Of a stretch of DNA of 64,000 nucleotides, positions 32,994 through 63,830 are shown in pieces. Position numbers and translations under genes: made by a program. Source of the DNA: Zopfochytrium polystomum (taxonomy: Eukaryota > Chytridiomycota > Chytridiomycetes > Chytridiales > Chytridiaceae); the NCBI GenBank assembly GCA_025765615.1, contig JAIVFJ010000253.1:24668-88667 (forward strand), given 5' to 3'. A model generated the notes under the pieces. It ran no database searches, was not told the DNA's origin, and saw only the letters and a program-made list of their open reading frames with translations. Every line of letters starts with the position of its first letter. Within the stretch, counting starts at the first letter, position 1.

Positions 32994-33006
32994 GTTAGGG
33001 TTAGGG
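32992..33006 (+). repeat. Interstitial telomeric tract (first of eight)
   Basis: Reads GGGTTAGGGTTAGGG. The same GTTAGGGTTAGGG junction recurs between array members at 35143-35155, 37048-37060, 40845-40857, 46895-46907, 52035-52047 and 63210-63222; at 58075-58086 it is one G shorter (GTTAGGGTTAGG). Each is only two telomeric repeats long. Confidence 0.97.
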
Positions 33007-35142
33007 AGGGGGGTTTTTTTGACTTTCGAACATGAGTGGCAAGGGGAAGGCGCCGTCGAGGCCGTCCTCAGCGGCGTCGACCTCGTCACCGTCTGCGTCC
33101 TCACGACCGATCACCGCTTTTTTCGCACCTTCGCCTTTCGCCGTTCTCGCCGACGCCGAATCCTCACCGCTACCCCCATCCACTCCGAATAGCCGTTCTT
33201 CAGCAAAACGGAAAACGGTTGACCACCCCTCGCCCGATCAGCTCAATTGGAACCCGGCCTCTGCCACGGACTTCGAGGCCCTTGAGCTAGCTCTCTTCTA
33301 CGCCACGCGATCCACCCTCCGATCAACCTGTTGCAAAGCTGAAGTTACCAGTCCTGAGAAGGCTGGCCGTCGCACTAAGTCAACAGGTGTCCGTAGTCTC
33401 AGTGTGACCTGCTCCGCTTGCAAGGCTAAGACGAGATTCCATCTCGTCTTGGGCACAAGCAATCGTGTTCTCCTCGACCGCTTACGGGCCTCACTGGAGG
33501 CCCTTTTTCGCCGATCACGGGAGGCTATTTCTGGCGAAACAGCCTTTCCCGTGGAACGCAAACGACATGCAGCAGATCGCCCATCCCCGCCGCCTGCACC
33601 CCCAGCGCCTGCAACGCCGGGGGTGGAGGGGTCGCGAGACGCGACCCCTCTCCCCCCGGATCCTGCGATGCCAACACCAGCCGCTCCGCTGCGGCTGGAC
33701 CCTCCGAATCCGGCCCAGCCACCGCCAGTGGCGGTGGCTGAGCCCTCCCCAAACGCAGATCCGCAGCGGGCCCCCCGGTCTGGCATGGCTAGACTGGATG
33801 CCCTGCTGCGCACGGCCCCACGAAATCTCGTGCAAAGCGATCGACCCCCGCCACGCAGTTTCCTCGATCAGATCGTTCGACTCAACCTCGACTCAAACGA
33901 AGACGGCTACACCCGCAGCTTGCTCGACAGCGTCGCTACAGCAGCACGCACAACCCTCGCCCCGATCTTCCTGACCATGGAGCGCATTATCACCGACCAG
34001 GATCAGCTGGTTGCCTCCCTCCGCCGCCAATTGGTCGAGGCGGAGGCGGCGGCTTCTGCTGCCGCCGCCGCTCCACTGCCTGTTCTCCGCCCACCCGTAT
34101 CCGATGCCGCTGTTAACACCGATCCTCCGACTCCAATGACCAACCTCGCCAGCCCCGGGGGCGGACCACCTGCTGATGGTGCGAAGGAACACAGGAAGGG
34201 CCCCGTGGGCTCCCGCAAGGGGGACCGGATGGCTCAACCCAAGTTTCTATCGCGCCGCGCGAAGCAGACAGCCGTGCTCAAGGCGGCGCTGCCTGACTCC
34301 ATCCCCGCACTTGTCCTCCGACCCGTCCGCCGCCCCTCGCCCACCCCACGGGATCCCGTTCGCTACGCTCCTGTATACTTCCGAGTCTCGATAGCACACC
34401 CAGACGCGCGGAAGCACCCCCTCCATTGGCTGCGGGCTTCGCTCGCCGCCATGAAAGCCCCCTACGCTCCTGAGCTCTCCCCGATTGGTCGCGGCCTACG
34501 CACGTGGGAAGCGTGGGTCGCCGAGGAGCGGGTGGCGGCTTTCACCCAATTCCTCTCTGACCATAGCGATCTCTTCGAACACCTCCCTGACTTCGATGTG
34601 CTATCTTTGCCGATCTCAGCAGATGCAGACGAGGACGCACGCCGCAAAGCCCACAATCGTGCCGCTGACGCCTTTCTCCGAAGACGGTCTCGACTTGCCC
34701 GGAATGCATTCCCAATGGATCTCCGTCGCTGCATTGTTGAGGCCTTCCCCGCCTGTTTCCACGATCGGTTGGAGCCTGGCCTGGCCAGGCTCTTGCCAAA
34801 TCCCGCTGATAATCCAAAGTGATGGAGACTTGATTTTGTTTCCTTGTTCCCCGTTGCGTTATTTGTTCCCATATCTCAGTTATGCTTCTTTCTCCGTACC
34901 ATTCTCCTATCTCTCCGCTCAATGTGGCCTACCTCCGTCTTGCCTCCATTGGCTTGCAATTACTAGGCATTGCTTTTGCATCTCATATTTAGTCCTTTCA
35001 ATCTGTCCCTTGTTGTCATATCCTTAGTTGCTTGGGTCTCTACTCTTCTGTCCACCTGTATGAGTCCTTTAACTTTCAAAGTTGCAGATTCCTCACCCTC
35101 TCCCTCACCTTCGGGTTGGAGCGAATAATACACTTTTGAAAA
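33007..35142 (+). mobile_element. Array member 1: ORF1-only element
   Basis: Begins AGGGGGGTTTTTTTGACTTTCGA right after a telomeric tract, similar to the type A 5' end (AGGGGACTTTTTCTTTCGA). It encodes one ORF1-like protein, then about 320 nt of T-rich 3' UTR. It ends with the tail shared by all array members (CTTTCAAAGTTGCAGATTCC, GGTTGGAGCGAATAA, TTGAAAA) followed by GTTAGGGTTAGGG. There is no endonuclease or RT. Both ends are intact, so it looks like a complete non-autonomous element rather than a truncated one. Confidence 0.8.
33032..34822 (+). CDS. ORF1-like protein of member 1
   Basis: Intact 596-codon ORF starting ATGAGTGGCAAG, 26 nt from the element's 5' end. Layout: Ser/Pro-rich basic N-terminus; FEALELALFY and two Cys pairs (about residues 85-115, CC... 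and CSAC), aligned in position with the CNRC and CSHC pairs of the type A ORF1; a Pro/Ala-rich middle; a predicted helical segment TMERIITDQDQLVASLRRQL (about 314-333) that may be a coiled coil; and a C-terminal domain with YAPVYFRVSIAHPDARKHPL and ELSPIGRGLRTWEAWV, matching FVPVYIRPNLSDVGRANPRH and EISVIGQYAALMECWV of type A. By analogy with LINE ORF1 proteins it should bind element RNA and may guide it to telomeres. Being open, it may still be expressed. Confidence 0.75.
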   Translation: MSGKGKAPSRPSSAASTSSPSASSRPITAFFAPSPFAVLADAESSPLPPSTPNSRSSAKRKTVDHPSPDQLNWNPASATDFEALELALFYATRSTLRSTCCKAEVTSPEKAGRRTKSTGVRSLSVTCSACKAKTRFHLVLGTSNRVLLDRLRASLEALFRRSREAISGETAFPVERKRHAADRPSPPPAPPAPATPGVEGSRDATPLPPDPAMPTPAAPLRLDPPNPAQPPPVAVAEPSPNADPQRAPRSGMARLDALLRTAPRNLVQSDRPPPRSFLDQIVRLNLDSNEDGYTRSLLDSVATAARTTLAPIFLTMERIITDQDQLVASLRRQLVEAEAAASAAAAAPLPVLRPPVSDAAVNTDPPTPMTNLASPGGGPPADGAKEHRKGPVGSRKGDRMAQPKFLSRRAKQTAVLKAALPDSIPALVLRPVRRPSPTPRDPVRYAPVYFRVSIAHPDARKHPLHWLRASLAAMKAPYAPELSPIGRGLRTWEAWVAEERVAAFTQFLSDHSDLFEHLPDFDVLSLPISADADEDARRKAHNRAADAFLRRRSRLARNAFPMDLRRCIVEAFPACFHDRLEPGLARLLPNPADNPK

Positions 35143-35155
35143 GTTAGGGTTAGGG

Positions 35156-36747
35156 GTGGATTGAAGATCAACTCTCTGCTGTTTGCTGATGACTCTGCAG
35201 TGTTTGGAAGGAACAAGGCTGTCCTTCAGAAGATGCTTGATGAAGTCCACAACTGGTCCCAGAGGCGGGGCATGACTTTTGCAGCACAGAAATGTGTTGT
35301 TGTTTCCAAGACAAGGAACCTGAGATTGCAGATGAATGGGGTGGTGCTCCCCCAGGAGAGGTCTACACTGCAGTTGGGACTTGTGCGTGACTGCAACGGA
35401 ATTGACTTTGAGACGTCTCTGCAGATGAGGGTGAAGAAGACTGAGAAGATGCTTCAGTTTCTGAAATCTCGCGGGTTCAATGGCTGGGGATTCCGGCCTG
35501 TGAATGCGTACAGGGTGTACATGTGTTTCCTGCGACCCATGCTGGAGTATGGGTTTGCGTTGAGGCCAAATTCAGAGGCCTTCTTGGCGCCTGCCCAGAA
35601 GGTCCAGGACATGTGTTTGCGCCAAGCTCTGTCTTTTGGGAAAACATCCAGCACTGTGGCAATGCATCTGATTTTTGGAGTGGTGCCGATGGTTGCCCGC
35701 AACAAGATGTTGAACGCGAGATATTTCTACAGACTGCACCACATTCAGGACCAGAGAAACACCACTGCACACATGTACAGGCACATGGCTGAGCGGGGGA
35801 GGCGGGCTCCTGCAGGATCCCTCACCAGGCTCACTCTGTTCACACCAGATGTAGATCTATATTTTGGGTCAGTGCCACGGAAGGCCTTGGCACAGATTCC
35901 GTTCGTCAGACACAGGACTTATCCATACGACCTTGAAGTTACCAGATCTGAGCCCAAGAACATTGATGCTGTCGCTATGCAGAAGATGCACACTGTGTCA
36001 CTTGAGAAGTATAAGGAAAAGGCCAACTTGACTGGAGTGGTGGCACCCCTGGTGGTCCCCCCTCACCGGGGGCCCTGCCAGGTGGTTCGTTCTGGTGCAA
36101 TGTTTAATAGGAGGTGGTTGAGATGCCTTGTGGCTTGGATGGGTGGCCGTGTTGCCTATCACCAGAAGTGCACGAAGTGTGATGCTGAGCTGGACAGGAA
36201 CCATGCCTTGGAGTGTTCAGGTGTGCGCCGCCTCCTGGAGGCGGACCACCCTGAGTGCGTCCCAAGCGTGGAGCAGGCGAGGAGGAACATCACAGTGCTG
36301 GATCTGCTGCTGCAGACTCTGACTTTCTGGGCGCCCTACACAGCCAATGATGCAGATAAGATCCCTCAGGAGACGAGGGTTGCTTCAAAGAAACTGGGGA
36401 TGAAGCTTGCTCGGCTGATTGCAAAGATTCGAGTGGAATGCGCTGGAATGAGGGACTTTGTGGATGCTTCAGAGACCACAGCAGAACAGGAGGCAGATTA
36501 TTTGATGGAAGCAGGGACAGTGGATGATAGGAGGGCGGATCTGAGGACTCGCATGCAGATGGCGCAGGTGCGGAGGCAAGCTAGGGAAGCCCTGCGTGCG
36601 CACTGGGATCCAGTGCGCAACAAGGGGTTTAGGGAATCGAGGAACAGGTGGCTGAATAAGGAGACTCAGGGAGTGACGGGGAAGCCGGACGGATCCGGAT
36701 GGGTTGACTCTGACACAGAGAGTGGTGCTTCATTGGGAGGTGGATGA
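35156..36747 (+). CDS. ORF2 type B, C-terminal part only
   Basis: Open frame from the truncation point to TGA at 36747, about 530 residues. It holds the RT motif C (LLFADDSAVFGRN), the downstream thumb region (KKTEKMLQFLKSRGFNGWGF), and the C-terminal Cys/His cluster CTKCDAELDRNHALEC. About 725 N-terminal residues (endonuclease and most RT motifs) are missing, so it cannot act alone. It has no start codon of its own. It differs from the other B copies by scattered substitutions (for example FADDSAVFGRN versus FADDSAVFARN). Confidence 0.9.
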
Positions 36748-37047
36748 GTGTCTGTTTCTCTTGCCTCATCATTTGTTTTCCATTTGTTTTTTGTTGTGTT
36801 GTCTTTCTATTTTCAAGCTGTTGTCTGGTTTAAGTTTGTTTCTACTGTTCTTTCTGCTGTCTTCTCTTCACCTTGGCCTCTTTGTTTTTCTTCATCGTTG
36901 GCTTTTTCTCTCTCTCACATGTGCCCCCTCTGACCTCTTGGACTTTCTGTCTTCTCCTTCACACGCATGTACTTTTTTAACTTTCAAGTTGCAGATTCCT
37001 CACCCCTTCCCTCGGGGGGGGTTGGAGCGAATAAATCCCGTTGAAAA
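35156..37047 (+). mobile_element. Array member 2: 5'-truncated type B copy
   Basis: Starts at GTGGATTGAAGATCAACTCT, inside the RT domain just before FADD, and runs to the shared 3' tail (ATCCCGTTGAAAA). Strong 5' truncation with an intact 3' end is the normal outcome of incomplete target-primed reverse transcription. The 3' UTR tail reads ATCCCG as in type A, not ATTCCA as in the other type B copies. Confidence 0.9.
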
Positions 37048-37060
37048 GTTAGGGTTAGGG

Positions 37061-40000
37061 CAGACTCTGGAGAAGGACACAAAGGGGGAGTGGGTCATTG
37101 CCAGGATGTCAGAGATTATCATGGCAGTGGTGTACTTTGCACCCTCGACGGATTTGGAGGTGCTTCAGTCATTCTCAGCAACAGCAGACAGGATTGCTGG
37201 GGCTAACCCCCAGGCACCCTTTCTGATCATTGGAGATTTCAACACTTCACTGCAGGAGTACGGCTGTGCTCACTCGCAGCCCAGGCTGAGGGTGGACTGG
37301 TGGCGCGCTTGGATTGATGGTTCAGGATGGAGCAGGGTTGAGCCAGTTCAGGGACAGTGGACCACTTTCTCACCTAGAATCGCTGGCCCAGTAGGCAGGG
37401 GAGTCACTGACTTGCTCCTTGTGAATCGTGCTGGACTTGGAGCTGTGCATAACTTGGTTGTCCATGACGCACCTGAGGAACACTTGGCCTTCACAGATCA
37501 CAGGATGCTCACCTTTGAGCTTCGAACACACTTGACCATGAAGCCACCCTTTGAGAGACTGAATGTGCGCAGGCTGATGCTGAGACAAGTCCAGTATGAG
37601 AAGAAACTTGCAGAGACCAGGAAGCCCTTGAGACAAGAGATTCACTCAGCATGGAAGTCTTTGAATGCCGCTGCTGTAGCTCAGGAGGAGTGGCCTTTTG
37701 AGCGCAGACGTGCCTGTGCAGACTCTGTATCTCAGTTGGTGGTGAAGTGGCTTGTGGACACTGGAGTCCAAGTGGCTGGGAAGACCAAGTTTAGGGGTGG
37801 TGCAGGCGGCCCTGATGTCGAGGAGAAGCATTTGGAGGAGCTGAAGCGCCGGCGGGACCTGTCCCGCATGGAGGCTGAAGCCCACCCTGATGATGATCCT
37901 GTCGGGCAGAAGGACGCCTGGGCAAAGTTCAGGCAGTGGAACAGGCTGACAAAGGTGGCCATCAAACGCTACAGGAAGAGGGTGTACTCTGCTGTGCAGG
38001 ACTTAGCTGTCAAGGACTTTGCTGCTGAAGCCAAGAGAATTAAGTGTCAGAAATCCAGAGTGGAGCGCACTCACTGTGCCCTTGACCCTCAGAAACTTCC
38101 AGACTATGCTGATCACTTTAGGGGAACCATTGGCCATGAGCCAACTGGTACTGATGCCGTCAACCAGAATGTCTTAGCTGCCTGCAGTGCTGAACGGCCC
38201 ATGGTGCCTCTGAAGCAATCTGAAGTTGCCTGGATCAAGAAGAATGCCGTGGAAGAGGCTTGCAAGATTGCACCCCGGGGCAAGGCCCCAGGGGAGGATG
38301 CCCTGTTTGGCGAACTGGTGTGCATTGCCCCACATGTGGTGGCTCCTGTGTTGCAGAGATTCTTCCAGTTGCTTGCAGCCCTCCAGGTGGTTCCCACACT
38401 CTGGGGGATCGCGAATGTTGCCCTTGTGTACAAGAACAAGGGGGTGAACACTGATGTGGCAAACTACAGGCCAATTTCTCTGTGCTCAAGGTTGAGGCTG
38501 GTGTATGAGCGGGTGTTGGCCCCGCAGGTGGAAAGAGTGGTTGAAGGAATGATCCACCCCTCACAGGGTGGTTTCAGGCGCCACAGGTCCACCATGGACC
38601 AGGCATTCACTCTTCATGAGCTTCAGCAACAGTACCCTGATCTGACTGTGGTGTACTTGGACATCAAGGCTGCCTATGATTGCACAAGCAGGAACTACGT
38701 GTGGGAATCCATCTGGAATGCCAAGAATGACAAGAGTCCTGAGTTCACCAGGAACCAGTTGCTGCCGATTCTCAGATCCTTGTTTGACTTTAATGCGTGC
38801 CAGCTTCTGGTCATGGGACAGAAGTCTGATCAGATTCCAGTGACGCGGGGATTTCTACAGGGAACTGTGCTGTCCCCAATGCTGTTCAATGTTGCCATCA
38901 ACTCGCTGCCTGAGGCGCTCTCTAGGGTGCCCCACAGCCAGTTGGAATGTGGTGGATTGAAGATCAACTCTCTGCTGTTTGCTGATGACTCTGCAGTGTT
39001 TGCAAGGAACAAGGCTGTCCTTCAGAATCTGCTTGATGAAGTCCACAACTGGTCCCAGAGGCGGGGCATGACCTTTGCAGCACAAAAATGTGTTGTTGTT
39101 TCCAAGACACGAAACTTGAGATTGCAGATGAATGGGGTGGTGCTCCCCCAGGAGAAGACCACACTGCAGCTGGGACTTGTGCGTGATTGCAACGGCATCG
39201 ACTTTGAGACGTCTCTGCAGATGAGGGTGAAGAAGACTGAGAAGATGCTTCAGTTTCTGAAATCTCGAGGGTTCAATGGCTGGGGATTCCGGCCTGTGAA
39301 TGCGTACAGGGTGTACATGTGCTTTCTGCGGCCCATGCTGGAGTATGGGTTTGCACTGAGGCCAAATTCAGAGGCCTTCTTGGCCCCGGCCCAGAAGGTC
39401 CAGGACATGTGTTTGCGCCAGGCTTTGTCTTTTGGGAAAACATCCAGCACTGTGGCAATGCATCTGATTCTTGGAGTGGTGCCTATGGTTGCACGCAACA
39501 AAATGTTGAACGCGAGATATTTCTACAGACTGCACCACACTCAGGACCAGAGAAACACCACCGCACACATGTACAGGCACATGGCGGAGCGGGGGCGGCG
39601 GGCTCCTGCAGGATCCCTCACCAGGCTCACTCTGTTCACACCGGATGTGGATCTATATTTTGGGTCAGTGCCACGGAAGGCCTTGGCACAGATTCCGTTT
39701 GTCAGACACAGGACTTATCCGTATGACCTTGAAGTCACCAGATCTGAGCCCAAGAACATTGATGCTGTCGCTATGCAGAAGATGCACACTGTGTCACTTG
39801 AGAAGTATAAGGAAAAGGCCAACTTGACTGGAGTGGCAGCACCCCTGGTGGTCCCCCCTCACCGGGGGCCCTGCCAGGTGGTTCGTTCTGGTGCAATGTT
39901 TAACAGGAGGTGGTTGAGATGCCTTGTGGCTTGGATGGGTGGCCGTGTTGCCTATCACCAGAAGTGCAAGAAGTGTGATGCTGAGCTGGACAGGAACCAT

Positions 40001-40543: not shown

Positions 40544-40844
40544 GTGTCTGTTTCTGTTGCCTCATCATTTGTTTTCTATTTGTTTTTTGTTGTGTTGTCT
40601 TTATGTCTTTAAGCTGTTGTCTGGTTTAAGTTTATTTCTACTGTTTTTTCAGATTTCTTCTCTTCACCTTGGCCTCTTTGTTTTTCTTCTTCTTTGGCTT
40701 TCTCTCTCTCTCACATGTTCCTCCTCTGACCTCTTGGACTCTCTTTCTTCTCCTTTATATGCATGTACTTTTTTAACTTTCAAGTTGCAGATTCCTCACC
40801 TCTTCTCTTGGGGGGGGGTTGGAGCGAATAAATTCCATTGAAAA
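37061..40844 (+). mobile_element. Array member 3: 5'-truncated type B copy
   Basis: Starts within the endonuclease domain (CAGACTCTGGAGAAGGACAC) directly after a telomeric tract and ends with the type B 3' tail ATTCCATTGAAAA. From 37061 to about 38045 it differs from members 5 and 7 at scattered positions. From about 38046 to the end I see no differences from member 5, and this identity continues into member 4. Confidence 0.9.
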
Positions 40845-40857
40845 GTTAGGGTTAGGG

Positions 40858-42768: not shown

Positions 42769-42816
42769 GACTGAACCCACTGCTGTGCGTGCAGGCGATG
42801 CCAATGCCATGGAAAC

Positions 42817-51733: not shown

Positions 51734-52047
51734 GTGTCTGTTTCTGTTGCCTCATCATTTGTTTTCTATTTGTTTTTTGTTGTGTTGTCTTTATGTCTTT
51801 AAGCTGTTGTCTGGTTTAAGTTTATTTCTACTGTTTTTTCAGATTTCTTCTCTTCACCTTGGCCTCTTTGTTTTTCTTCTTCTTTGGCTTTCTCTCTCTC
51901 TCACATGTTCCTCCTCTGACCTCTTGGACTCTCTTTCTTCTCCTTTATATGCATGTACTTTTTTAACTTTCAAGTTGCAGATTCCTCACCTCTTCTCTTG
52001 GGGGGGGGTTGGAGCGAATAAATTCCATTGAAAAGTTAGGGTTAGGG

Positions 52048-54009: not shown

Positions 54010-57000
54010 GCAAGTCATTGAGATTTGGATTTTTGAATGCCCATGGATCCTTAGCTGGACATTCAGATCAAGTTCAAGGAATTTTTTCAGATTTTCAAGT
54101 AGACTATATGTTGTTTTCAGATATTGGAATGTGGAGTTCTGACAGTATGAGTGCAGTTCAGGGTGTTGTTGCTGAGGCAAGGGGGGTTCCCCCTCCTTAT
54201 CAACCTGGGCGGAATGTTGGAACAAGGGCAAAGAAGGGAGTGGCTGTTGTGGTGAGCGGGGATCTGGACAGTGATGCCCACCTGGTGGTGCAGACCCTGC
54301 ACAGGTCCCCCAAGGGAGAATGGATAATTGTGAAGATGTCGGAGCTGATTGTTGGATTGACATACTTTGCGCCAAGCGCACCTCTGGAGTCATTGCAGGA
54401 ATTCCAAGATCAAGTTAGTCAAGTTAGCACTCTTATGCCTGCAGCACCCTTTCTGATCATTGGAGACTTCAACATTTGGATGCGTGAATATGGATGCCGC
54501 ACCTCTGCTCCTGCTGAACGCGTTTGCTGGCTGCAGGACTGGCTGCGACCCCCTTCCCAGTGGAGGAGGGTAGCGCCGGTTCGTGGCCAGTGGACCACAA
54601 TGACAGAGGGACGGGCCGGTGGACCTGGTGGACGGGGGGTCACTGATCTTCTGTTTGTCAACCAGCATGCTCTCCCCTTTGTTCAGAACCTAGTTGTCCA
54701 TGATGACCCTTCAGAGTATGTTGGATTCTCAGACCACAGGCTGTTGACCTTCACCTTCAATGGGGATCTGACCACCAAGCCCCCGTTTGAGCGCCTGAAT
54801 GTTCGTCGGCTCATGATGAGACAGACCAAGTATGCTAGCTGCCTTGAGAAGACCAGGAAACCCATCAGAGCCCAGATTCATTCAGTTTGGAAAGAAGTTG
54901 AAGCTGCCGCTGAGGCCGGAGAGCTCTGGACTTATGAGAGGCGCTTGGCTTGTGTGGATGCTGTTTCAGACTTGGTCATGCAGTGGCTCATGGACAATGC
55001 TGTTAAGGTGGCTGGGAAAGTTCGCTTTAGGGGTGGATCTGGAGGACCAGAGGTCCGGGAGAAGCATCTGGAGGAGCTAAAGCACCGTCGAGTGGAGGCG
55101 CGAAGGGCTGCTGAGGCTCACCCAGAGGATGATCCTGTGGGGCAGAAGATGGCCTGGACTCAGTTTCGTCAGTGGAATAAGATCGTGAAGATTGCCATCA
55201 AGCGGTACAGGAAGCGTGTATATTCAGCTGTCCAGGACTCTGCTGTGCGTGACTTTGCTGGTGAGGCTAAGCGCATCAAGTGTCAGAAGGCTCGTTCAGA
55301 TAGGAGCCAGTGTGCCCTTGACCCCCAGAAGATGGGCCATTACGAAGATCATTTCCGCACAACCATAGGGCATGATCCAACTGGAACTGATGTCCCTGAC
55401 GCCGTGGCTCTGGAAGAATCAGCGGTTACTGTGAACAAAGTCCCTCTGAAGCAGTCTGAAGTCTCCTGGATTAAGAAGGTTCATGTTGAAGAAGCCTGCA
55501 AGAATGCCCCCAGGGGCAAAGCCCCTGGAGAAGACATGCTTTTTGGGGAGTTGGTCTCAATTGCTCCGCACTTGGTTGCTGCAGTCCTGCACAGATTCTT
55601 TCAGCTTGTGGCCTCTCTTCATGTGGTTCCTTCTCTGTGGTCTGTGGCCAATGTGGCCTTGGTCTACAAGAACAAGGGGCTCAACAGCGATGTTGCAAAC
55701 TACAGACCCATCTCCTTGTGCTCAAGGATGCAACTGGTGTTTGAACGAGTGATTGCACCCCAGGTTGAGCGCGTGGTTGAAGGCATGATCCATAGGGCGC
55801 AGGGAGGTTTCAGAAGAAAGCGTTCCACCATGGACCAGGCTTACACTTTGCATGAGCTTCAGCAGCTCAACCCCCAGATGCATGTGGTGTATTTGGACAT
55901 TAAGGCTGCGTATGACTGCACAAACAGGAGTCTGGTGTGGGACTCCCTCTGGTTTGCCAGGAATGACAAGAGTTGTGACTTTACAAGGACTCAACTGCTG
56001 CCGATCCTCAGATCTTTGTTTGATTTCAATGCATGCCAGCTGCTGGTACTTGGGAACAAGTCTGCTCAGATCCAAGTGACAAGAGGATTTCTCCAAGGCA
56101 CAGTCCTGTCACCCATGCTGTTCAATGTTGCCATCAACTCCTTGCCTCAGACATTGGCCATGTCTTTCAGGGACCACATGCTGACATTTAATGCAACCTC
56201 GCTCAACTCGCTGCTCTTTGCAGACGACTCCTCAGTTTTTGCCAAGGATGCGACAGTACTTCAGAGAATGCTAGACAAGGTGCATGAGTGGTCCCTTAAG
56301 CGGGGGATGACATTTGCTGCCAAGAAGTGTGTTGCAGTTTCAGCCAAGAAGAATTTGAAGTTGAAGATGAATGGAGTGGAGATTCCCCAGGAGGAGTCTA
56401 CTACCCAGTTGGGTCTTGTGCGCACCTGCAGGGGTATTGACTTTGAGGCATCGCTGGCCATGAGACTGAGGAAAACAGAAAAGATGCTGGCCTTTTTGGC
56501 TGCTCGGGGTTTCAATGGCTGGGGCTTCAGGCCCGTGAGCTCTTACAGGGTTTACATGTGTTTCTTGAGACCAATGATGGAGTATGGGTTTGCACTGCGC
56601 CCCCTGACTCACACACAGCTGAAGGATGCACAGAAGTTGCAGGACAAGTGCCTGCGGCAGGCGTTGTCACTGGGGAAGACCTCCTCAGGGGCGGCCCTGC
56701 ATCTGATGTTTGGAGTGGTCCCTGTGGCAGCCAGGAACAAGATGCTGAATGCCAGATACTTTTTCAGACTGCACCACATTCAGGATGCTCGCAACACAAC
56801 GGCTCAGATGTACAGGCACATGGTGGAAAAGATTGCTTCAGGGGCCTCTGTGGGACAGTCCTTGACAAAGTTTTCGCTTGACTATACGGATATTCAGGAT
56901 TTCTTGAACTCGGTGAGGCGGCCCTCCTTTGTGGAGTTGCCACTTGTGCTCCCCACAACCAAGGCCTATGACATTGAGTTGCCTGTGATGAGAACAAAGA

Positions 57001-57788
57001 ACATTGAGGCTGCAGACATGCTGGCCATGCACAAGAGGGCCCTGGTGAGGTGCCAGAAGAAATCCTCCCCCACAGGGGTGGCTCAGGCTTTGGAGGTGCC
57101 TTCACACATGGGGCCATGCCAAGTTATTCGATCTGGTGCGGCATTCAACAGGAAGTGGCTCAGACACCTGCTGATGTGGATGGCTGGGATGGTAGCATTT
57201 CACCAACAGTGTGCAAGGGCTGGCTGTGCAGAGAAGTGCACTAGGAGGCATGTTTTGGAGTGTTCAGGTGTTAAGGACAGGCTGGAGAGGCTGCATCCTG
57301 AGTTGATTCCCACTGCAGAGCAACAGGATTTGAACATTTCAGCAGTGGATTTGGGCCTAAGGTCGCTGGTCTTTTGGGCCCCCTACAGTGCCAAAGCTGA
57401 GGACAAGATCTCTAAGGAGACTCGCATTGCCTCCAAGAAGATGGGAATGAAGTTGGCCAGAATGATCATGCAGATGCGCGTTGAGTGTGGAGGACTTGCG
57501 AATTTCACTGATGCTTCAGAGACAACAGCAGCAGAGGAGGCAGAGGTTGTGGTGGAGGCAGGTCGTGTGGACCGACAGGATATGAGTATTCAGGAACGGA
57601 TGGCAGCAGCCAGGGTGCGCAAGCTTGCAAGGTCGGTCATCATCACCACCTACGATCCAGTACGGAACAAACAGTGGCGGGAGTCAAGGGAGAAGTGGAA
57701 GAAGAAGGAAACGGAGGGGGTTGAGGGGACAGTGGACGGCAATGGGCATGTGGACTCTGATTCAGAGGAGGAGGCTGGAACTGGGTGA
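54006..57788 (+). CDS. ORF2 type A: endonuclease-reverse transcriptase
   Basis: Intact, 1260 residues. Its ATG overlaps the ORF1 stop as ATGA, suited to termination-reinitiation. Domains: APE-type endonuclease (1-250) with LIIGDFN (Asp154 and Asn156 of GDFN at 153-156), GVTDLLFVN (211-219) and FSDHR (241-245); a basic linker; RT (about 480-830) with YRPISLCSR (566-574), QGGFRRKRSTMDQ (599-611), DIKAAYD (631-637), GFLQGTVLSPMLF (694-706), FADD (738-741, catalytic Asp pair) and QLGLV (801-805); a long C-terminal region with FNGWGF; and a Cys/His cluster (Cys1069, 1074, 1078, His1082, Cys1086). It nicks the target and copies the element RNA there. FADD replaces the more usual YADD. The protein is clearly homologous to type B ORF2 over its length. 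Confidence 0.95.
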   Translation: MSKSLRFGFLNAHGSLAGHSDQVQGIFSDFQVDYMLFSDIGMWSSDSMSAVQGVVAEARGVPPPYQPGRNVGTRAKKGVAVVVSGDLDSDAHLVVQTLHRSPKGEWIIVKMSELIVGLTYFAPSAPLESLQEFQDQVSQVSTLMPAAPFLIIGDFNIWMREYGCRTSAPAERVCWLQDWLRPPSQWRRVAPVRGQWTTMTEGRAGGPGGRGVTDLLFVNQHALPFVQNLVVHDDPSEYVGFSDHRLLTFTFNGDLTTKPPFERLNVRRLMMRQTKYASCLEKTRKPIRAQIHSVWKEVEAAAEAGELWTYERRLACVDAVSDLVMQWLMDNAVKVAGKVRFRGGSGGPEVREKHLEELKHRRVEARRAAEAHPEDDPVGQKMAWTQFRQWNKIVKIAIKRYRKRVYSAVQDSAVRDFAGEAKRIKCQKARSDRSQCALDPQKMGHYEDHFRTTIGHDPTGTDVPDAVALEESAVTVNKVPLKQSEVSWIKKVHVEEACKNAPRGKAPGEDMLFGELVSIAPHLVAAVLHRFFQLVASLHVVPSLWSVANVALVYKNKGLNSDVANYRPISLCSRMQLVFERVIAPQVERVVEGMIHRAQGGFRRKRSTMDQAYTLHELQQLNPQMHVVYLDIKAAYDCTNRSLVWDSLWFARNDKSCDFTRTQLLPILRSLFDFNACQLLVLGNKSAQIQVTRGFLQGTVLSPMLFNVAINSLPQTLAMSFRDHMLTFNATSLNSLLFADDSSVFAKDATVLQRMLDKVHEWSLKRGMTFAAKKCVAVSAKKNLKLKMNGVEIPQEESTTQLGLVRTCRGIDFEASLAMRLRKTEKMLAFLAARGFNGWGFRPVSSYRVYMCFLRPMMEYGFALRPLTHTQLKDAQKLQDKCLRQALSLGKTSSGAALHLMFGVVPVAARNKMLNARYFFRLHHIQDARNTTAQMYRHMVEKIASGASVGQSLTKFSLDYTDIQDFLNSVRRPSFVELPLVLPTTKAYDIELPVMRTKNIEAADMLAMHKRALVRCQKKSSPTGVAQALEVPSHMGPCQVIRSGAAFNRKWLRHLLMWMAGMVAFHQQCARAGCAEKCTRRHVLECSGVKDRLERLHPELIPTAEQQDLNISAVDLGLRSLVFWAPYSAKAEDKISKETRIASKKMGMKLARMIMQMRVECGGLANFTDASETTAAEEAEVVVEAGRVDRQDMSIQERMAAARVRKLARSVIITTYDPVRNKQWRESREKWKKKETEGVEGTVDGNGHVDSDSEEEAGTG

Positions 57789-58086
57789 CAGTTTGTGCAG
57801 TGTTTCAGGTGCAGTCCTTCGAACCTCATTTGTTTTCTATTTGTTTTCTTGTTGTTAAATTTCACCTCACCTCTGTGGATCCTCTCCTCTTTTTCTTGTT
57901 GACCTAGTTGCTGTCCTTTGTTTTTCTGCCTTTTGATTCTCTACCTGGCACCTCTTTCTTGCCTCTGGACATGTCTCTCCTATTTCATATGTATGCACTT
58001 TTTAACTTTCAAAGTTGCAGATCCCTCACCCTCTCCCTCGGGGGGGGGTTGGAGCGAATAAATCCCGTTGAAAAGTTAGGGTTAGG

Positions 58087-58485
58087 AGTAGCTCAGTTGG
58101 TTAACACCTCTGAGTTTGCTGGTGAGGGGCGCCGGTTCGATCCCGGCAAAGGTCAGAGGGGAAGAGCGTCTAAAAACCATCCGATAAGGACACCCCGACC
58201 CTCCTCTGGTAGCCCCTGGTGGTTAGTACGGTGAAAGCCGTGCGAGGTAGCTCAAATAACGGGAAGGTACCTGGCACGCTACCCAGGTACTGGGCCGTCG
58301 CGGTTAAGTTGAGTGATGTCCTCCAATGACGGCTCCCCATAAGGACAGCTAAGGAGACTATACTGACCGGCGCGACTGATGAGAGCGGCTACCGGTGTGC
58401 TAAGCATGCTCAAGGTTTCACGGTGCCTAGTGAATAAAGTTGAGCCCCAGTTGGGGGGCCTGAGGGTTCAACTCCCTCCTAGGTA
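58087..58485 (+). other. tRNA-like leader of type B (copy 2)
   Basis: Apart from the first few bases I see no difference from the leader of member 5, including both tRNA-like folds and the long hairpin. A TAG (58480-58482) lies just before the ORF1 homology, so the leader cannot supply an upstream in-frame start. Confidence 0.65.
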
Positions 58486-59157
58486 CGGATTACCGACCCC
58501 AAGGTTGATGCAGAGACCAAGCTCAAGCAGATTTTCAGACCCAGATCCTCCGTGGTTGAGGCCCGCCGTGCGGCGCCGGACTATGTCCCACCTGCGTGGT
58601 CCCTCGCCGGAGCGAAGTATGTCCCAGTATATATCCGGCCGAACCTAGCAGATGTTGGCAGGGCTGCCCCTCGCCACAGTCTCAGACTCTTGTTCACTGC
58701 TGCAAATGGATTCCCCCGAGTACCTGAAATCTCTGTGATTGGAAGACATGCCTCCTTGATGGAGTGTTGGGTATTGGAATCTGAGAGAGCCAAGTTTGTT
58801 GCCGCCTGTAAAAAGGCTGAGGTTGTGGTTGACGAGGAGTGTGAGCCATGGAAACCCTCGCGCCTCCGATCAGGGGCCGAGGCTGAAGCTGCTGCTGCCC
58901 GAGCATTTGTGAGCCGCATTGCTGGAATTCTGAACCACCCGACATTCCGTCCCTCTGTGCTGCTGGCGAAGTCTATCTGTGAATTTGTGCCCCGCCAGTT
59001 TGTGGCTGACCTGAAGGTGAAGCTTCGCGACCCGTCACACTTTCCTGCCAAGGGGAAGGAGCCGGAGACGGAGGCAGAACCTTTAGAGACACCCAAGCCC
59101 CGTGGGGCTGAAGACACAGGAGCTTCCAGTGGTGCCGACGAGATGCTTGATGATTGA
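58483..59157 (+). CDS. ORF1 type B, N-terminally truncated remnant
   Basis: Open for about 224 codons from the leader boundary to TGA at 59157. It begins at ITDPKVDAETKLKQIFRPRS, which aligns with the last third of the type A ORF1; the N-terminal Cys pairs and coiled coil are absent. It ends in an acidic tail (ETEAEPLETP, GADEMLDD). No in-frame ATG precedes SLMECW, so normal translation is doubtful. It contains the conserved C-terminal domain only. Being followed by an overlapping ORF2, it may serve mainly to bring ribosomes to the ORF2 start, or it may be a non-coding relic. Confidence 0.7.
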   Translation, partial: VRITDPKVDAETKLKQIFRPRSSVVEARRAAPDYVPPAWSLAGAKYVPVYIRPNLADVGRAAPRHSLRLLFTAANGFPRVPEISVIGRHASLMECWVLESERAKFVAACKKAEVVVDEECEPWKPSRLRSGAEAEAAAARAFVSRIAGILNHPTFRPSVLLAKSICEFVPRQFVADLKVKLRDPSHFPAKGKEPETEAEPLETPKPRGAEDTGASSGADEMLDD

Positions 59158-62100
59158 TGGACTTAGATTTGGATTTGTGAACTTGAACTGCTCGCTCTCA
59201 GGACATGTCAAGAACATCGATCAAGCATTCTCAGATTTCCATTCAGATTATATTTTGTTGGCGGACACTGGGCTTACTGTGGTGGAGAATAACCCGTTGA
59301 GGGGATTGGTGGCTGATTCACGGGGTCCGCCCCTGGAGTATGTGGTACGCCAGGCGATCGGGCATAAGGGCAAGAAGGGGGTGTCCATTCATAAGGGCAA
59401 GAGGATGGAGGAGGACCTGGTGGTCCAGACTCTGGAGAAGGACACAAAGGGGGAGTGGATTATTGCAAGGATGTCGGAGATTATCATGGCAGTGGTGTAC
59501 TTTGCACCCTCGACGGATTTGGAGGTGCTTCAGTCATTCTCAGCCACAGCAGACAGGATTGCAGGGGCTAATCCCCAGGCACCCTTTCTGATCATTGGAG
59601 ATTTCAACACTTCACTGCAGGAGTACGGATGTGCTCACTCACAACCCAGGAACAGGGTGGACTGGTGGCGCACTTGGACTGATGGTTCAGGATGGAGCAG
59701 GGTTGAGCCCGTTCGGGGCCAGTGGACCACCTTCTCACCCAGACTTGCTGGCCCTGCAGGCAGGGGAGTCACTGACTTGCTCCTTGTGAATCGAGCTGGA
59801 CTTGGAGCTGTGCATAACTTGGTTGTCCATGACGCACCTGAGGAACACTTGCCTTTCACAGACCACAGGATGCTCACTTTTGAGATTCGAACACACCTGA
59901 CCATGAAACCACCCTTTGAGAGACTGAATGTGCGCAGGCTGATGCTGAGACAAGTCCAGTATGAGAAGAAACTTGCAGAGACCAGGAAGCCCTTGAGACA
60001 AGAGATTCACTCAGCGTGGAAGACTTTGAATGCTGCTGCTGTAGCTCAGGAGGAGTGGTCTTTTGAGCGCCGACGTGCCTGTGCAGACTCTGTATCTCAG
60101 TTGGTGGTGAAGTGGCTTGTGGACACTGGAGTCCAAGTGGCTGGGAAGACCAAGTTTAGGGGCGGTGCAGGCGGCCCTGATGTCGAGGAGAAGCATTTGG
60201 AGGAGCTGAAGCGCCGGCGGGACTTGTCGCGCATGGAGGCTGAAGCCCACCCTGATGATGATCCTGTCGGGCAGAAGGACGCCTGGGCAAAGTTCAGGCA
60301 GTGGAACCGGCTGACAAAGGTGGCCATCAAACGCTACAGGAAGAGGGTGTACTCTGCTGTGCAGGATTTAGCTGTCAAGGACTTTGCTGCGGAAGCCAAG
60401 AGAATCAAGTGTCAGAAATCCAGAGTGGAGCGCACTCACTGTGCCCTTGACCCTCAGAAACTTCCAGACTATGCTGATCACTTTAGGGGAACCATTGGCC
60501 ATGAGCCAACTGGTACTGATGCCGTCAACCAGAATGTCTTAGCTGCCTGCAGTGCTGAACGGCCCATGGTGCCTCTGAAGCAATCTGAAGTTGCCTGGAT
60601 CAAGAAGAATGCCGTGGAAGAGGCTTGCAAGATTGCACCCCGGGGCAAGGCCCCAGGGGAGGATGCCCTGTTTGGCGAACTGGTGTGCATTGCCCCACAT
60701 GTGGTGGCTCCTGTGTTGCAGAGATTCTTCCAGTTGCTTGCAGCCCTCCAGGTGGTTCCCACACTCTGGGGGATCGCGAATGTTGCCCTTGTGTACAAGA
60801 ACAAGGGGGTGAACACTGATGTGGCAAACTACAGGCCAATTTCTCTGTGCTCAAGGTTGAGGCTGGTGTATGAGCGGGTGTTGGCCCCGCAGGTGGAAAG
60901 AGTGGTTGAAGGAATGATCCACCCCTCACAGGGTGGTTTCAGGCGCCACAGGTCCACCATGGACCAGGCATTCACTCTTCATGAGCTTCAGCAACAGTAC
61001 CCTGATCTGACTGTGGTGTACTTGGACATCAAGGCTGCCTATGATTGCACAAGCAGGAACTACGTGTGGGAATCCATCTGGAATGCCAAGAATGACAAGA
61101 GTCCTGAGTTCACCAGGAACCAGTTGCTGCCGATTCTCAGATCCTTGTTTGACTTTAATGCGTGCCAGCTTCTGGTCATGGGACAGAAGTCTGATCAGAT
61201 TCCAGTGACGCGGGGATTTCTACAGGGAACTGTGCTGTCCCCAATGCTGTTCAATGTTGCCATCAACTCGCTGCCTGAGGCGCTCTCTAGGGTGCCCCAC
61301 AGCCAGTTGGAATGTGGTGGATTGAAGATCAACTCTCTGCTGTTTGCTGATGACTCTGCAGTGTTTGCAAGGAACAAGGCTGTCCTTCAGAATCTGCTTG
61401 ATGAAGTCCACAACTGGTCCCAGAGGCGGGGCATGACCTTTGCAGCACAAAAATGTGTTGTTGTTTCCAAGACACGAAACTTGAGATTGCAGATGAATGG
61501 GGTGGTGCTCCCCCAGGAGAAGACCACACTGCAGCTGGGACTTGTGCGTGATTGCAACGGCATCGACTTTGAGACGTCTCTGCAGATGAGGGTGAAGAAG
61601 ACTGAGAAGATGCTTCAGTTTCTGAAATCTCGAGGGTTCAATGGCTGGGGATTCCGGCCTGTGAATGCGTACAGGGTGTACATGTGCTTTCTGCGGCCCA
61701 TGCTGGAGTATGGGTTTGCACTGAGGCCAAATTCAGAGGCCTTCTTGGCCCCGGCCCAGAAGGTCCAGGACATGTGTTTGCGCCAGGCTTTGTCTTTTGG
61801 GAAAACATCCAGCACTGTGGCAATGCATCTGATTCTTGGAGTGGTGCCTATGGTTGCACGCAACAAAATGTTGAACGCGAGATATTTCTACAGACTGCAC
61901 CACACTCAGGACCAGAGAAACACCACCGCACACATGTACAGGCACATGGCGGAGCGGGGGCGGCGGGCTCCTGCAGGATCCCTCACCAGGCTCACTCTGT
62001 TCACACCGGATGTGGATCTATATTTTGGGTCAGTGCCACGGAAGGCCTTGGCACAGATTCCGTTTGTCAGACACAGGACTTATCCGTATGACCTTGAAGT

Positions 62101-62908
62101 CACCAGATCTGAGCCCAAGAACATTGATGCTGTCGCTATGCAGAAGATGCACACTGTGTCACTTGAGAAGTATAAGGAAAAGGCCAACTTGACTGGAGTG
62201 GCAGCACCCCTGGTGGTCCCCCCTCACCGGGGGCCCTGCCAGGTGGTTCGTTCTGGTGCAATGTTTAACAGGAGGTGGTTGAGATGCCTTGTGGCTTGGA
62301 TGGGTGGCCGTGTTGCCTATCACCAGAAGTGCAAGAAGTGTGATGCTGAGCTGGACAGGAACCATGCCTTGGAGTGTTCAGGTGTGCGCCGCCTCCTGGA
62401 GGCGGACCACCCTGAGTCCATCCCAAGCATGGAGCAGGCGAGGAGGAACATCACAGTGCTGGATCTGCTGCTGCAGACGCTGACTTTCTGGGCGCCCTAC
62501 ACAGCCAATGATGCGGATAAGATCCCTCAGGAGACGAGGGTTGCTTCAAAGAAGCTGGGGATGAAGCTTGCTAGGCTGATTGCAAAGATTCGAGTGGAAT
62601 GCGCTGGAATGAGGGACTTTGTGGATGCTTCAGAGACCACAGCAGAACAGGAGGCAGATTATTTGATGGAAGCAGGGACAGTGGATGATAGGAGGGCGGA
62701 TTTGAGGACTCGCATGCAGATGGCGCTGGTGCGGCGGCAAGCTAGGGAAGCCCTGCGTGCACACTGGGATCCAGTGCGCAACAAGGGGTTTAGGGAATCG
62801 AGGAACAGGTGGCTGACTAAGGAGACTCAAGGAGTGACGGGGAAGCCGGACGGATCCGGATGGGTGGACTCTGATACAGAGAGCGGTGCTTCAGTGGGAG
62901 GTGGATGA
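59150..62908 (+). CDS. ORF2 type B: endonuclease-reverse transcriptase
   Basis: Intact, 1252 residues from ATG at 59150, overlapping the end of ORF1 by 8 nt. The start is chosen because MIDGLRFGFVNLN aligns with the type A start MSKSLRFGFLNAH. Domains: APE-type endonuclease with LIIGDFN (GDFN at 150-153), GRGVTDLLLVN and FTDHRML; RT with YRPISLCSR, QGGFRRHRSTMDQ, DIKAAYD, GFLQGTVLSPMLF, LLFADDSAVFA (about 735) and LGLV; and a C-terminal cluster CX2CX7HX3C (CKKCDAELDRNHALEC). The C-terminus is acidic (DSDTESGASVGGG), like the DSDSEEEAGTG end of type A. It is the likely source of activity for type B and possibly for the ORF1-only element. Many copies share the exact 3' half. Confidence 0.95.
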   Translation: MIDGLRFGFVNLNCSLSGHVKNIDQAFSDFHSDYILLADTGLTVVENNPLRGLVADSRGPPLEYVVRQAIGHKGKKGVSIHKGKRMEEDLVVQTLEKDTKGEWIIARMSEIIMAVVYFAPSTDLEVLQSFSATADRIAGANPQAPFLIIGDFNTSLQEYGCAHSQPRNRVDWWRTWTDGSGWSRVEPVRGQWTTFSPRLAGPAGRGVTDLLLVNRAGLGAVHNLVVHDAPEEHLPFTDHRMLTFEIRTHLTMKPPFERLNVRRLMLRQVQYEKKLAETRKPLRQEIHSAWKTLNAAAVAQEEWSFERRRACADSVSQLVVKWLVDTGVQVAGKTKFRGGAGGPDVEEKHLEELKRRRDLSRMEAEAHPDDDPVGQKDAWAKFRQWNRLTKVAIKRYRKRVYSAVQDLAVKDFAAEAKRIKCQKSRVERTHCALDPQKLPDYADHFRGTIGHEPTGTDAVNQNVLAACSAERPMVPLKQSEVAWIKKNAVEEACKIAPRGKAPGEDALFGELVCIAPHVVAPVLQRFFQLLAALQVVPTLWGIANVALVYKNKGVNTDVANYRPISLCSRLRLVYERVLAPQVERVVEGMIHPSQGGFRRHRSTMDQAFTLHELQQQYPDLTVVYLDIKAAYDCTSRNYVWESIWNAKNDKSPEFTRNQLLPILRSLFDFNACQLLVMGQKSDQIPVTRGFLQGTVLSPMLFNVAINSLPEALSRVPHSQLECGGLKINSLLFADDSAVFARNKAVLQNLLDEVHNWSQRRGMTFAAQKCVVVSKTRNLRLQMNGVVLPQEKTTLQLGLVRDCNGIDFETSLQMRVKKTEKMLQFLKSRGFNGWGFRPVNAYRVYMCFLRPMLEYGFALRPNSEAFLAPAQKVQDMCLRQALSFGKTSSTVAMHLILGVVPMVARNKMLNARYFYRLHHTQDQRNTTAHMYRHMAERGRRAPAGSLTRLTLFTPDVDLYFGSVPRKALAQIPFVRHRTYPYDLEVTRSEPKNIDAVAMQKMHTVSLEKYKEKANLTGVAAPLVVPPHRGPCQVVRSGAMFNRRWLRCLVAWMGGRVAYHQKCKKCDAELDRNHALECSGVRRLLEADHPESIPSMEQARRNITVLDLLLQTLTFWAPYTANDADKIPQETRVASKKLGMKLARLIAKIRVECAGMRDFVDASETTAEQEADYLMEAGTVDDRRADLRTRMQMALVRRQAREALRAHWDPVRNKGFRESRNRWLTKETQGVTGKPDGSGWVDSDTESGASVGGG

Positions 62909-63222
62909 GTGTCTGTTTCTGTTGCCTCATCATTTGTTTTCTATTTGTTTTTTGTTGTGTTGTCTTTATGTCTTTAAGCTGTTGTCTGGTTTAAGTTTAT
63001 TTCTACTGTTTTTTCAGATTTCTTCTCTTCACCTTGGCCTCTTTGTTTTTCTTCTTCTTTGGCTTTCTCTCTCTCTCACATGTTCCTCCTCTGACCTCTT
63101 GGACTCTCTTTCTTCTCCTTTATATGCATGTACTTTTTTAACTTTCAAGTTGCAGATTCCTCACCTCTTCTCTTGGGGGGGGGTTGGAGCGAATAAATTC
63201 CATTGAAAAGTTAGGGTTAGGG

Positions 63223-63830
63223 AGGGGACTTTTTCTTTCGATACGTTCCCGACTTTGTTGGAAGACAAGGTCGAGGGCGCCTTCGCAAGCGGAAGTCGAG
63301 GTCGAAGACACCATCAGCGTGTCACAGCCCCCTAAGAAACAAACAACCCTTACTTTTGCGCCAGCCCCCGCCGCATCCTCGTCATCTCAGTCTTCAACAG
63401 CACCTGCGACTCCCCTTGCCTCGACGCGCGAGTTCCCGCGCCGTCTATTTGAGGTTCATACGTCGCACGAATTCCACGCTCTCGAGCGATCGCTCTTCAA
63501 ATTTTATCAGAAACGCATCACCTGCAACCGCTGTCACCGCCCCCTCATCTCCAAGGGCCTCGCGGGACGAGCAAACTCAGTCTCGAGCATCCAGCGCCTA
63601 TCCATCCAGTGCTCTCACTGCCCCCACCCAGTTTCCCGACGATTCCACGTCGATCTCGCTCACCTCAGCCCCGACGACTACTCCCTGCTGGACAGCGCCC
63701 TTCGACGAGTTCACGCTGAAGCAACCGCTTCAGCGATCCGATCCTACACCCACTTCACCCCCATTCGGCCCATCCCGTCCAACCGGAAGAAACGTACACC
63801 TCCTGTGGCGGAGGCGAACCCACCAAAACG
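63223..63830 (+). mobile_element. Array member 8: type A cut by the telomere
   Basis: Same as the first 608 nt of type A (5' end and ORF1 to EANPPKR), then breaks at CCAAAACG and passes directly into telomeric repeats. The 5' end is kept and the 3' end lost, the reverse of a retrotransposition truncation, so this is a terminal deletion capped by telomere addition. Confidence 0.95.

What the first reader, a model, noticed from the sequence alone, without database searches (positions are those of the whole stretch)
33007..63830. Head-to-tail array of telomere-targeting LINEs with constant two-repeat junctions
Seen: eight same-strand non-LTR elements, each separated by GTTAGGGTTAGGG (one junction is a base shorter), 3' ends facing the telomere, no poly-A. 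Known: Bombyx SART/TRAS and fungal MoTeR elements target telomeres, but usually with variable repeat lengths or other junctions. Inference: an endonuclease nick in the CCCTAA strand with priming there gives exactly this orientation, and the fixed 13 nt suggests the two repeats are carried at the RNA 3' end or define the cut position. I know of no described chytrid element with this layout.
Basis: partly seen in the sequence, partly recalled or inferred. Interest (0 to 1): 0.93.

Follow-up and report, generated by a model that had tools for sequence, protein, structure and literature searches.

The report
Self-stacking retrotransposons at a telomere-like site
In a fungal (probably chytrid) genome, LINE-type jumping genes insert into a 12-letter site made of two telomere repeats and copy that site each time they land, so new copies keep stacking head-to-tail, often near chromosome ends.

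Summary
The array is real: eight same-strand non-LTR units at 33006-63829, capped by TTAGGG repeats from 63830. Unit E1 has no detectable reverse transcriptase, E2 and E3 are 5'-truncated, E8 has lost its 3' end, and E4-E5/E6-E7 is largely a duplication. The core spacer is 12 bp (GTTAGGGTTAGG).

I read 105 distinct junctions of the same 3' tail across the genome. The spacer behaves as a target-site duplication, not as RNA-carried repeats. Its sequence variants are private to single arrays yet shared by structurally different elements there (22 of 25 arrays uniform, 8.7 expected, 0 of 20,000 shuffles). GTTATGGTTAGG occurs four times in 80 Mb, all on one contig, three directly after tails. Of 28 truncated elements, 26 begin right after base 12.

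Best reading: APE-type LINEs nick the CCCTAA strand at a two-repeat site with a 12-bp stagger. Each insertion regenerates the site, giving head-to-tail arrays, as known for R1 in 28S rDNA. Tails cluster at contig ends facing outward, but 38 of 81 on large contigs lie over 30 kb inside, and no recognised tail before a true telomere tract was found. New variant of a known kind.

The parts
32994..33005 (+). First target dodecamer GTTAGGGTTAGG, preceded by GG and then by sequence with no match to the window's elements
33006..35142 (+). E1, 2.1-kb unit with no reverse transcriptase found; shares 61 bp near its 3' end (88.5% to E6) with the others
33023..34822 (+). E1 ORF (599 aa, stop to stop), no Pfam hit; weak similarity to family A and B ORF1 (E 1e-5 to 4e-6)
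35143..35154 (+). 12-bp spacer (target-site duplication)
35155..37047 (+). E2, 5'-truncated family B copy (95.4% to E3, E5 and E7)
37048..37059 (+). 12-bp spacer, followed by one G (37060) that the full-length B copies do not have
37061..40844 (+). E3, 5'-truncated family B copy (98.9% to E5)
40845..40856 (+). 12-bp spacer
40857..46894 (+). E4, full-length-type family A element; its ORF2 region is split over more than one frame
46895..46906 (+). 12-bp spacer
46907..52034 (+). E5, full-length-type family B element; ORF2 in two overlapping frames
52035..52046 (+). 12-bp spacer
52047..58074 (+). E6, family A element with a long ORF1 frame and an uninterrupted ORF2
53964..57788 (+). Family A ORF2 (1274 aa): Exo_endo_phos (5.2e-6) and RVT_1 (3.1e-25)
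58075..58086 (+).
58087..63209 (+). E7, family B element with an uninterrupted ORF2
59087..62908 (+). Family B ORF2 (1273 aa): RVT_1 (4e-26) and Exo_endo_phos (9.9e-5, below the curated cut-off)
63210..63221 (+). 12-bp spacer
63222..63829 (+). E8, family A element cut off after about 608 bp (3' end lost); 607 bp identical to the start of E4 and E6
63830..63993 (+). Terminal TTAGGG tract starting on the broken E8; the contig (88,667 bases) ends with the window

Best explanation
The array consists of APE-type non-LTR retrotransposons (two related autonomous families plus passengers) that are specific for a 12-bp site made of two telomere repeats in fixed phase, GTTAGGGTTAGG. The endonuclease nicks the C-rich strand just 5' of the site (CCTAACCCTAAC^). 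Reverse transcription starts there at the element's TTGAAAA 3' end. The G-rich strand is cut 12 bp further on, so the whole site is duplicated. Because the duplicate is again a complete target on both sides, later insertions go into the same spot. This gives same-orientation head-to-tail arrays with constant 12-bp spacers, often 5'-truncated units, and 3' ends towards the telomere wherever the site is telomeric. Shown from sequence: spacer length, fixed phase, private variants, truncation points, two-sided duplications. Inferred: strand order of the nicks, the endonuclease as the source of specificity, and telomerase healing of broken end units. Some units also spread by ordinary duplication.
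For: Spacer: 81 of 105 distinct junctions begin GTTAGGGTTAG and 61 of 105 are GTTAGGGTTAGG. Uniformity: 22 of 25 multi-junction arrays carry one 12-mer only, 16 of them the common one and 6 a variant (shuffle mean 8.7; 0 of 20,000 shuffles reach 22). Private variants: GTTATGGTTAGG occurs 4 times in 80 Mb, all on C98, three directly after tails; the fourth, with one of these, brackets a 3,104-bp stretch that ends in a tail. GTTAGGGATAGG: 8 of 10 on C151 and C321. GTTAGGGTTAGT: 7 in the C102 array, 5 on C383 and 3 on C38, of 26. GATAGGGTTAGG brackets a 1,581-bp stretch on C21. GTTAGGGTTAGC lies on both sides of the first C55 element. A family with an unrelated tail (TTTCTTGAGGA, 7 rows) has the same spacers, including the C102 form. 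Of 28 truncated downstream elements with 28 different truncation points, 26 start at the base after the 12-mer and 1 at the next base. Spacer and missing element base agree no more than by chance at position 12 (6 of 29), and 23 of 29 have no microhomology. Domains.
Against: The variant spacers at C75, C112 and C246 have no twin on the same contig; mutation after insertion would explain this but was not tested. On C98, C151 and C383 the private 12-mer occurs on both strands, which needs inversions or assembly errors. C321, C55 and C81 spacers are not uniform. Three distinct junction sequences on C44 and C190 run 16-18 bases into an unidentified sequence Y, not an element head that I could assign. 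One of 28 truncated units starts 12 bases late, and E3 has one extra G. Position 11 of the spacer agrees with the missing element base in 14 of 29, above a quarter. Part of the arrays are duplications (C253, C44), which inflates uniformity. The endonuclease was not assayed.
Confidence: 0.86

Rival explanations
1. The two repeats are part of the RNA 3' end (read-through of telomere repeats or an encoded tail) and are written in with each insertion.
For: Most tails (81 of 105 distinct junctions) are followed by the same 11 bases whatever comes next.
Against: Spacer variants go with the array, not with the element family: different families, tail subtypes and truncations on one contig share a private 12-mer. 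A second family with another tail shares them too. On C81 the three junctions read all lack the first G. The same 12-mer stands in front of first units at array bases.
Confidence: 0.06
2. Arrays grew by recombination (unequal exchange, break-induced or rolling-circle replication) from one ancestral junction, so spacers are identical by descent, as argued for one MoTeR array (PMC7367193).
For: E4/E6 and E5/E7 are 99.1% and 99.9% alike, and E4/E6 are identical over their first 1,775 aligned columns. C44 tails repeat with a period of about 21 kb.
Against: Many spacers join different elements: 28 truncated units have 28 different truncation points, 27 of them starting within one base of the 12-mer, which repeated copying of one junction cannot give.
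Confidence: 0.07
3. Elements insert at random into long telomere tracts (SART/TRAS-like), and the tracts later shrink to two repeats for stability.
For: Outward orientation near contig ends (26 of 29 within 10 kb). In Magnaporthe, interstitial tracts of at most two repeats are the stable ones (PMC7367193, passages).
Against: No recognised tail followed by three perfect repeats was found. Non-telomeric variant sites show the same 12 bp. The phase is fixed at GTTAGG. Shrinkage would not stop at 12 bp in step with private variants.
Confidence: 0.06

Closest known systems
R1 tandem arrays in Drosophila 28S rRNA genes (PMC2718515, passages read)
   Same: LINE (APE-type: recalled); fixed-length TSD (14 bp in ancestral-type R1); further copies insert into the TSD, giving tandem arrays whose spacer is the TSD; also 5'-truncated copies and copies outside the 28S site
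   Different: Target is two telomere repeats, TSD 12 bp; at least one further family with an unrelated tail shares the site; tails are enriched near contig ends
TRAS1/SART1 of Bombyx mori (PMC7265360, outline and passages read; PMC10088271, passages read)
   Same: Specific for telomere repeats; TRAS is described as inserting into the CCTAA strand, the strand inferred here; R1 families according to PMC10088271
   Different: SART1 needs at least three repeats and inserts at many positions of a long tract; a long poly(A) tail matters for it. Here two repeats suffice, the tail is GAAAA, and no insertion into a long tract was seen. Clade not established here
MoTeR1/2 (Magnaporthe) and FoTeR (Fusarium) (PMC7367193, PMC12857005, passages read)
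   Same: Fungal non-LTR elements at TTAGGG ends with telomere-like repeats at their borders; truncated MoTeRs get new telomeres
   Different: Restriction-like endonuclease; 5' end faces the chromosome end (opposite to here); repeat tracts at the borders vary in length; the FoTeR authors could not identify definitive TSDs
Zepp, GilM/GilT, HeT-A/TART (named in PMC10088271, passages read)
   Same: Retrotransposons at chromosome ends
   Different: Drosophila HTT arrays have the poly-A end towards the centromere, opposite to here; for Zepp and GilM/GilT I saw only names and summary lines

Membership tests
APE-type non-LTR retrotransposon (LINE) | Reverse transcriptase of the non-LTR type | tested here: met
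   RVT_1 up to 2.5e-26; best solved relatives are LINE-1 ORF2p 3.7e-20 and R2 3.4e-10
APE-type non-LTR retrotransposon (LINE) | N-terminal APE-like endonuclease | tested here: met
   PF03372 at 5.2e-6 in E6 (family A) and 1.6e-5 in E5 (family B), above the curated cut-off; E3 and E7 fall just below it. GDFN and (S/T)DH motifs conserved (their meaning is recalled)
APE-type non-LTR retrotransposon (LINE) | 5' truncation and target-site duplication | tested here: met
   28 truncation points; two-sided duplications
R1 clade (R1, TRAS, SART) | Phylogenetic placement of the RT in the R1 clade | not tested
   No reference set at hand; the family B endonuclease alone had no PDB hit up to E 10, so the solved R1 and TRAS1 endonucleases (recalled as deposited) were not matched
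TRAS/SART-like telomere element | Insertion inside long telomere tracts | tested here: not met
   No recognised tail followed by three perfect repeats (6 matches with up to 2 mismatches; the only one with three perfect repeats, C590:20697, follows GTTAAAA and is not among the listed tails). Unassembled ends could hide such cases
MoTeR/FoTeR | Restriction-like endonuclease and 5' end facing the chromosome end | tested here: not met
   APE-type domain; 3' end faces the end in the window and in 26 of 29 tails within 10 kb of ends of known-length contigs of at least 150 kb
Site-specific LINE with TSD-iterated arrays (works like R1) | Constant-length TSD as the spacer of head-to-tail copies | tested here: met
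   exceptions are told in the report

The most novel reading that the evidence does not exclude
A guild of LINEs and non-autonomous passengers with unrelated 3' tails shares one self-renewing 12-bp landing pad. At chromosome ends they enter only the innermost two repeats at the telomere/subtelomere border and leave the telomere tract alone. They thereby build renewable subtelomeric buffers whose broken ends are recapped by telomerase. Support: of six array bases held near contig ends, four have a flank ending GG+GTTAGGGTTAGG (14 nt of repeat) before the first element, and one has one repeat more (20 nt, C4). The same GGGTTAGGG opens four TTAGGG tracts. The sixth (C68) has 23 nt of imperfect repeat without the GG.
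Probability: 0.28. Interest if true: 0.78.

Novelty: new variant of a known kind. Interest (0 to 1): 0.57.

Why it matters
Target-site duplications of telomere-specific LINEs are hard to read because the target is itself a repeat; the FoTeR authors say so (PMC12857005). Here degenerate single sites let the duplication be read: 12 bp, two repeats. That explains the fixed spacer, the head-to-tail order and the orientation without a special RNA end, and it carries the R1 tandem mechanism from rDNA to chromosome ends in what is probably a chytrid. It also makes testable how such elements spare the telomere tract and how subtelomeres grow.

Tried and rejected
RNA-borne repeats: rejected on private spacer variants. 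Array growth by copying alone: true for part of the window, rejected as the main cause. tRNA-like heads: the 5' ends of family B (46907, 58087) and of a short family (TGTGTAGGACAGTGG...) look to me like tRNA A and B boxes, but ARAGORN, Rfam and a permissive Rfam scan of the E7 head (only a chance CRISPR match at E 0.76) gave no tRNA, so I do not claim it. Family B endonuclease against PDB: no hit up to E 10; with the five-sequence profile, only an exodeoxyribonuclease at 0.095 besides reverse transcriptases. Sequence Y after telomere-like repeats on C14, C16, C44 and C190: no Rfam match in the loci scanned, only simple-repeat reading frames in L051. Rows dropped: 3 of 108 junction rows (reverse-strand reads of a fold-back), leaving 105; identical junctions counted once. 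In one search an array means the junctions of one contig, with C16, C19, C88 and C173 split by me. In one search, 6 of 175 tails have a negative distance because unknown contig lengths were interpolated; I use only known-length contigs. While checking this report I found that the 13th base is element-derived at E2 but not at E3, that the late truncated unit starts 12 and not 13 bases late, and that a sixth array base (C68) does not fit the border pattern; the text and the odds of the novel case were changed for it.
Full report
What is there. The window is the right end of contig C253 (88,667 bases) of an 80.2-Mb, 761-contig assembly. From 33006 to 63829 eight same-strand units follow each other, separated by GTTAGGGTTAGG, and the contig ends in about 165 bases of TTAGGG repeats that begin at 63830 on a broken unit. 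By DNA comparison E4, E6 and E8 form family A (about 6.03 kb when complete), and E5 and E7 form family B (about 5.13 kb). E3 and E2 are family B copies truncated at the 5' end, and E1 is a 2.1-kb unit that shares only 61 bases near its 3' end with the others. ORF2 of both families has an APE-type endonuclease match (PF03372; above the curated cut-off in E5 and E6, just below it in E3 and E7) and a reverse transcriptase (RVT_1); it is uninterrupted in E6 and E7. A and B ORF2 are 61% identical. The best solved relatives are LINE-1 ORF2p (3.7e-20) and R2 (3.4e-10).

Organism. The closest named protein is 87% identical over 17% of the query and is from Zopfochytrium polystomum (Chytridiales), on an 88,773-base contig. 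C253 is 88,667 bases and C249-C252 are 87,500-89,364. This fits, but the check that would place that protein in this genome did not complete.

Independent events in the window. E4/E6 differ at 56 of 6,038 aligned columns, none of them in the first 1,775; E5/E7 differ at 9 of 5,128. So the A-B pair was at least partly copied as a block, and I count about four independent junctions among seven. The evidence therefore has to come from the rest of the genome.

Genome-wide junctions. The pattern TTGGAGCGAATAA...GAAAA occurs 164 times, with 0 in the reversed control. With its two 3' forms and up to two mismatches I listed 175 places on 74 contigs, 42 of them with two or more; one further match was counted but not listed. 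Under the rule (tail plus at least 40 following bases held, identical junctions counted once) 108 rows were found. I dropped 3 fold-back rows and kept 105. Of these, 81 of 105 begin GTTAGGGTTAG and 61 of 105 are GTTAGGGTTAGG. The rest are mainly variants of it, with a few further off (for example GTCAAGGCTTAG and GTTAGGACTTGG).

The spacer is a target-site duplication. First, variants belong to the site. Of 25 arrays with two or more junctions, 22 show a single 12-mer (16 the common one, 6 a variant); shuffling gives 8.7 on average and never 22 (0 of 20,000). In C102, C38, C22, C98, C151 and the C19 pair at 285-287 kb the shared variant is followed by different sequences. Second, these variants concentrate at such sites. 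GTTATGGTTAGG occurs four times in the genome, all on C98: three right after tails, and the fourth bounding a 3,104-bp stretch that ends in one of those tails. GTTAGGGATAGG occurs ten times, four on C151 and four on C321. GTTAGGGTTAGT occurs 26 times, of which 7 in the C102 array, 5 on C383 and 3 on C38. Matches against reversed-pattern controls were 14 against 30 (GTTAYRGTTAGG), 10 against 8, 26 against 15, and 23 against 16 (GATAGGGTTAGR), so it is the clustering at element borders, not the count, that matters. Third, a family with an unrelated tail (ends TTTCTTGAGGA, 7 rows) is followed by the same spacers and, in C102, by the C102 variant. Fourth, the same 12-mer bounds both sides of single stretches on C98, C21 and C55; on C98 and C21 I did not hold the whole stretch.

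Length. Where a 5'-truncated element follows, its match starts at the base after the 12-mer in 26 of 28 cases, one base later in one, and 12 bases late in one, at 28 different truncation points. The search began after the 12-mer, so overlap was checked apart: 23 of 29 have no microhomology, and spacer position 12 agrees with the missing element base in 6 of 29, position 11 in 14 of 29. So the stagger is 12 bp, two repeat periods. In the window the 13th base G is the element's own at E2, but not at E3, where the full-length copies have C.

Mechanism. A 12-bp duplication of the whole site leaves a full target on each side of the new copy. Repeated insertion then gives what is seen: same orientation, constant spacer, mixed families and truncations. 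Stage and Eickbush describe this for R1: tandem copies separated by the 14-bp 28S TSD, ascribed to insertion into the TSD (PMC2718515, passages). What is inferred here is that the element's own endonuclease reads the 12-mer, that the first nick is at CCTAACCCTAAC^, and that the broken end units were capped by telomerase.

Relation to telomeres. On contigs of at least 150 kb with known length, 29 of 81 tails lie within 10 kb of an end (that zone holds about 6.3% of the bases, computed with partly interpolated lengths), and 26 of those 29 point outwards. But 38 of 81 lie more than 30 kb inside, 14 of them outward. Contig ends are not all chromosome ends. A search for TTGAAAA plus three repeats, up to two mismatches, gave six matches. 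Five follow recognised tails and none of these has three perfect repeats (longest GTTAGGGTTAGGGTTAGGA, C190). The sixth, C590:20697, has three perfect repeats after GTTAAAA and is not a listed tail; I did not read around it. Of six array bases held near contig ends, four have a flank without match to the window's elements and then GG+GTTAGGGTTAGG before the first element (C16, C17, C39, window), one has one repeat more (C4), and one, C68, has 23 nt of imperfect repeat without GG. The same GGGTTAGGG opens TTAGGG tracts on C14, C15, C16 and the broken E8. This hints that the innermost dodecamer of the telomere is the entry point; so few cases do not prove it.

Comparison. SART1 needs at least three repeats and inserts at many positions of a long tract (PMC7265360). 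MoTeR and FoTeR use a restriction-like endonuclease, face the other way and have border repeats of varying length; the FoTeR authors report that definitive TSDs could not be identified because the target is repetitive (PMC7367193; PMC12857005). The membership table therefore files this as an APE-type LINE that works like R1. It is not filed as R1, TRAS/SART or MoTeR. Paper searches showed no chytrid element of this kind, nor did the passages read of two chytrid genome papers (PMC11797018; PMC9926174). Most subscription papers are not in that library.

Against my reading. Variant spacers at C75, C112 and C246 have no same-contig twin. Private 12-mers occur on both strands of C98, C151 and C383. 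C81 spacers differ in register, and C321 and C55 spacers are not uniform. Duplication inflates uniformity in some arrays. No function was tested.

Noticed in passing
G000 C16:466-495 kb (L016-L024, L019): Two arrays face each other tail to tail around a short TTAGGG tract and sequence Y, as in an end-to-end chromosome fusion or a misjoined contig.
   Followed up: partly
L001 (C14), L019 (C16), L051 and L092 (C44), L128 (C190): A sequence beginning GGGGGGCGACAGGACGAAGAAC follows telomere-like repeats in the same orientation in every copy held; no Rfam match in the four loci scanned (L001, L019, L051, L092), and L051 is rich in short tandem repeats.
   Followed up: partly
G000 C44:326-376 kb: Tails repeat with a period of about 21 kb, suggesting a large tandem duplication of an array plus sequence Y.
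   Followed up: no
G000 C98, C151, C383: The same private spacer 12-mer occurs on both strands of one contig, the nearest opposite-strand copies about 25-66 kb apart, which suggests inverted copies.
   Followed up: no
Whole assembly: (TTAGGG)3 is found 336 times on the + strand and 2 times on the - strand of the contigs; probably an assembly effect.
   Followed up: no
L010 (C4), L016 and L021 (C16): Directly after a spacer stands an inverted copy of a tail end (CCCTAGCTTTTCAATAG...), a fold-back next to the normal tail.
   Followed up: no
window 53964-57788 and 59087-62908, N-terminal part: At the place where I recall a catalytic glutamate in APE endonucleases, families A and B have aspartate (SDIG/ADTG), while the homologue P0001 has glutamate.
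   Followed up: no
window 46907 and 58087; L016, L060 and L136 junctions: Element heads that look like tRNA A/B boxes, and a roughly 640-bp unit with such a head and the common tail that may be a SINE; not confirmed by ARAGORN or Rfam.
   Followed up: partly
window 22827-22986 and 30940-31146: Two tandem repeats (87-bp and 66-bp units) on the side of the array away from the telomere.
   Followed up: no
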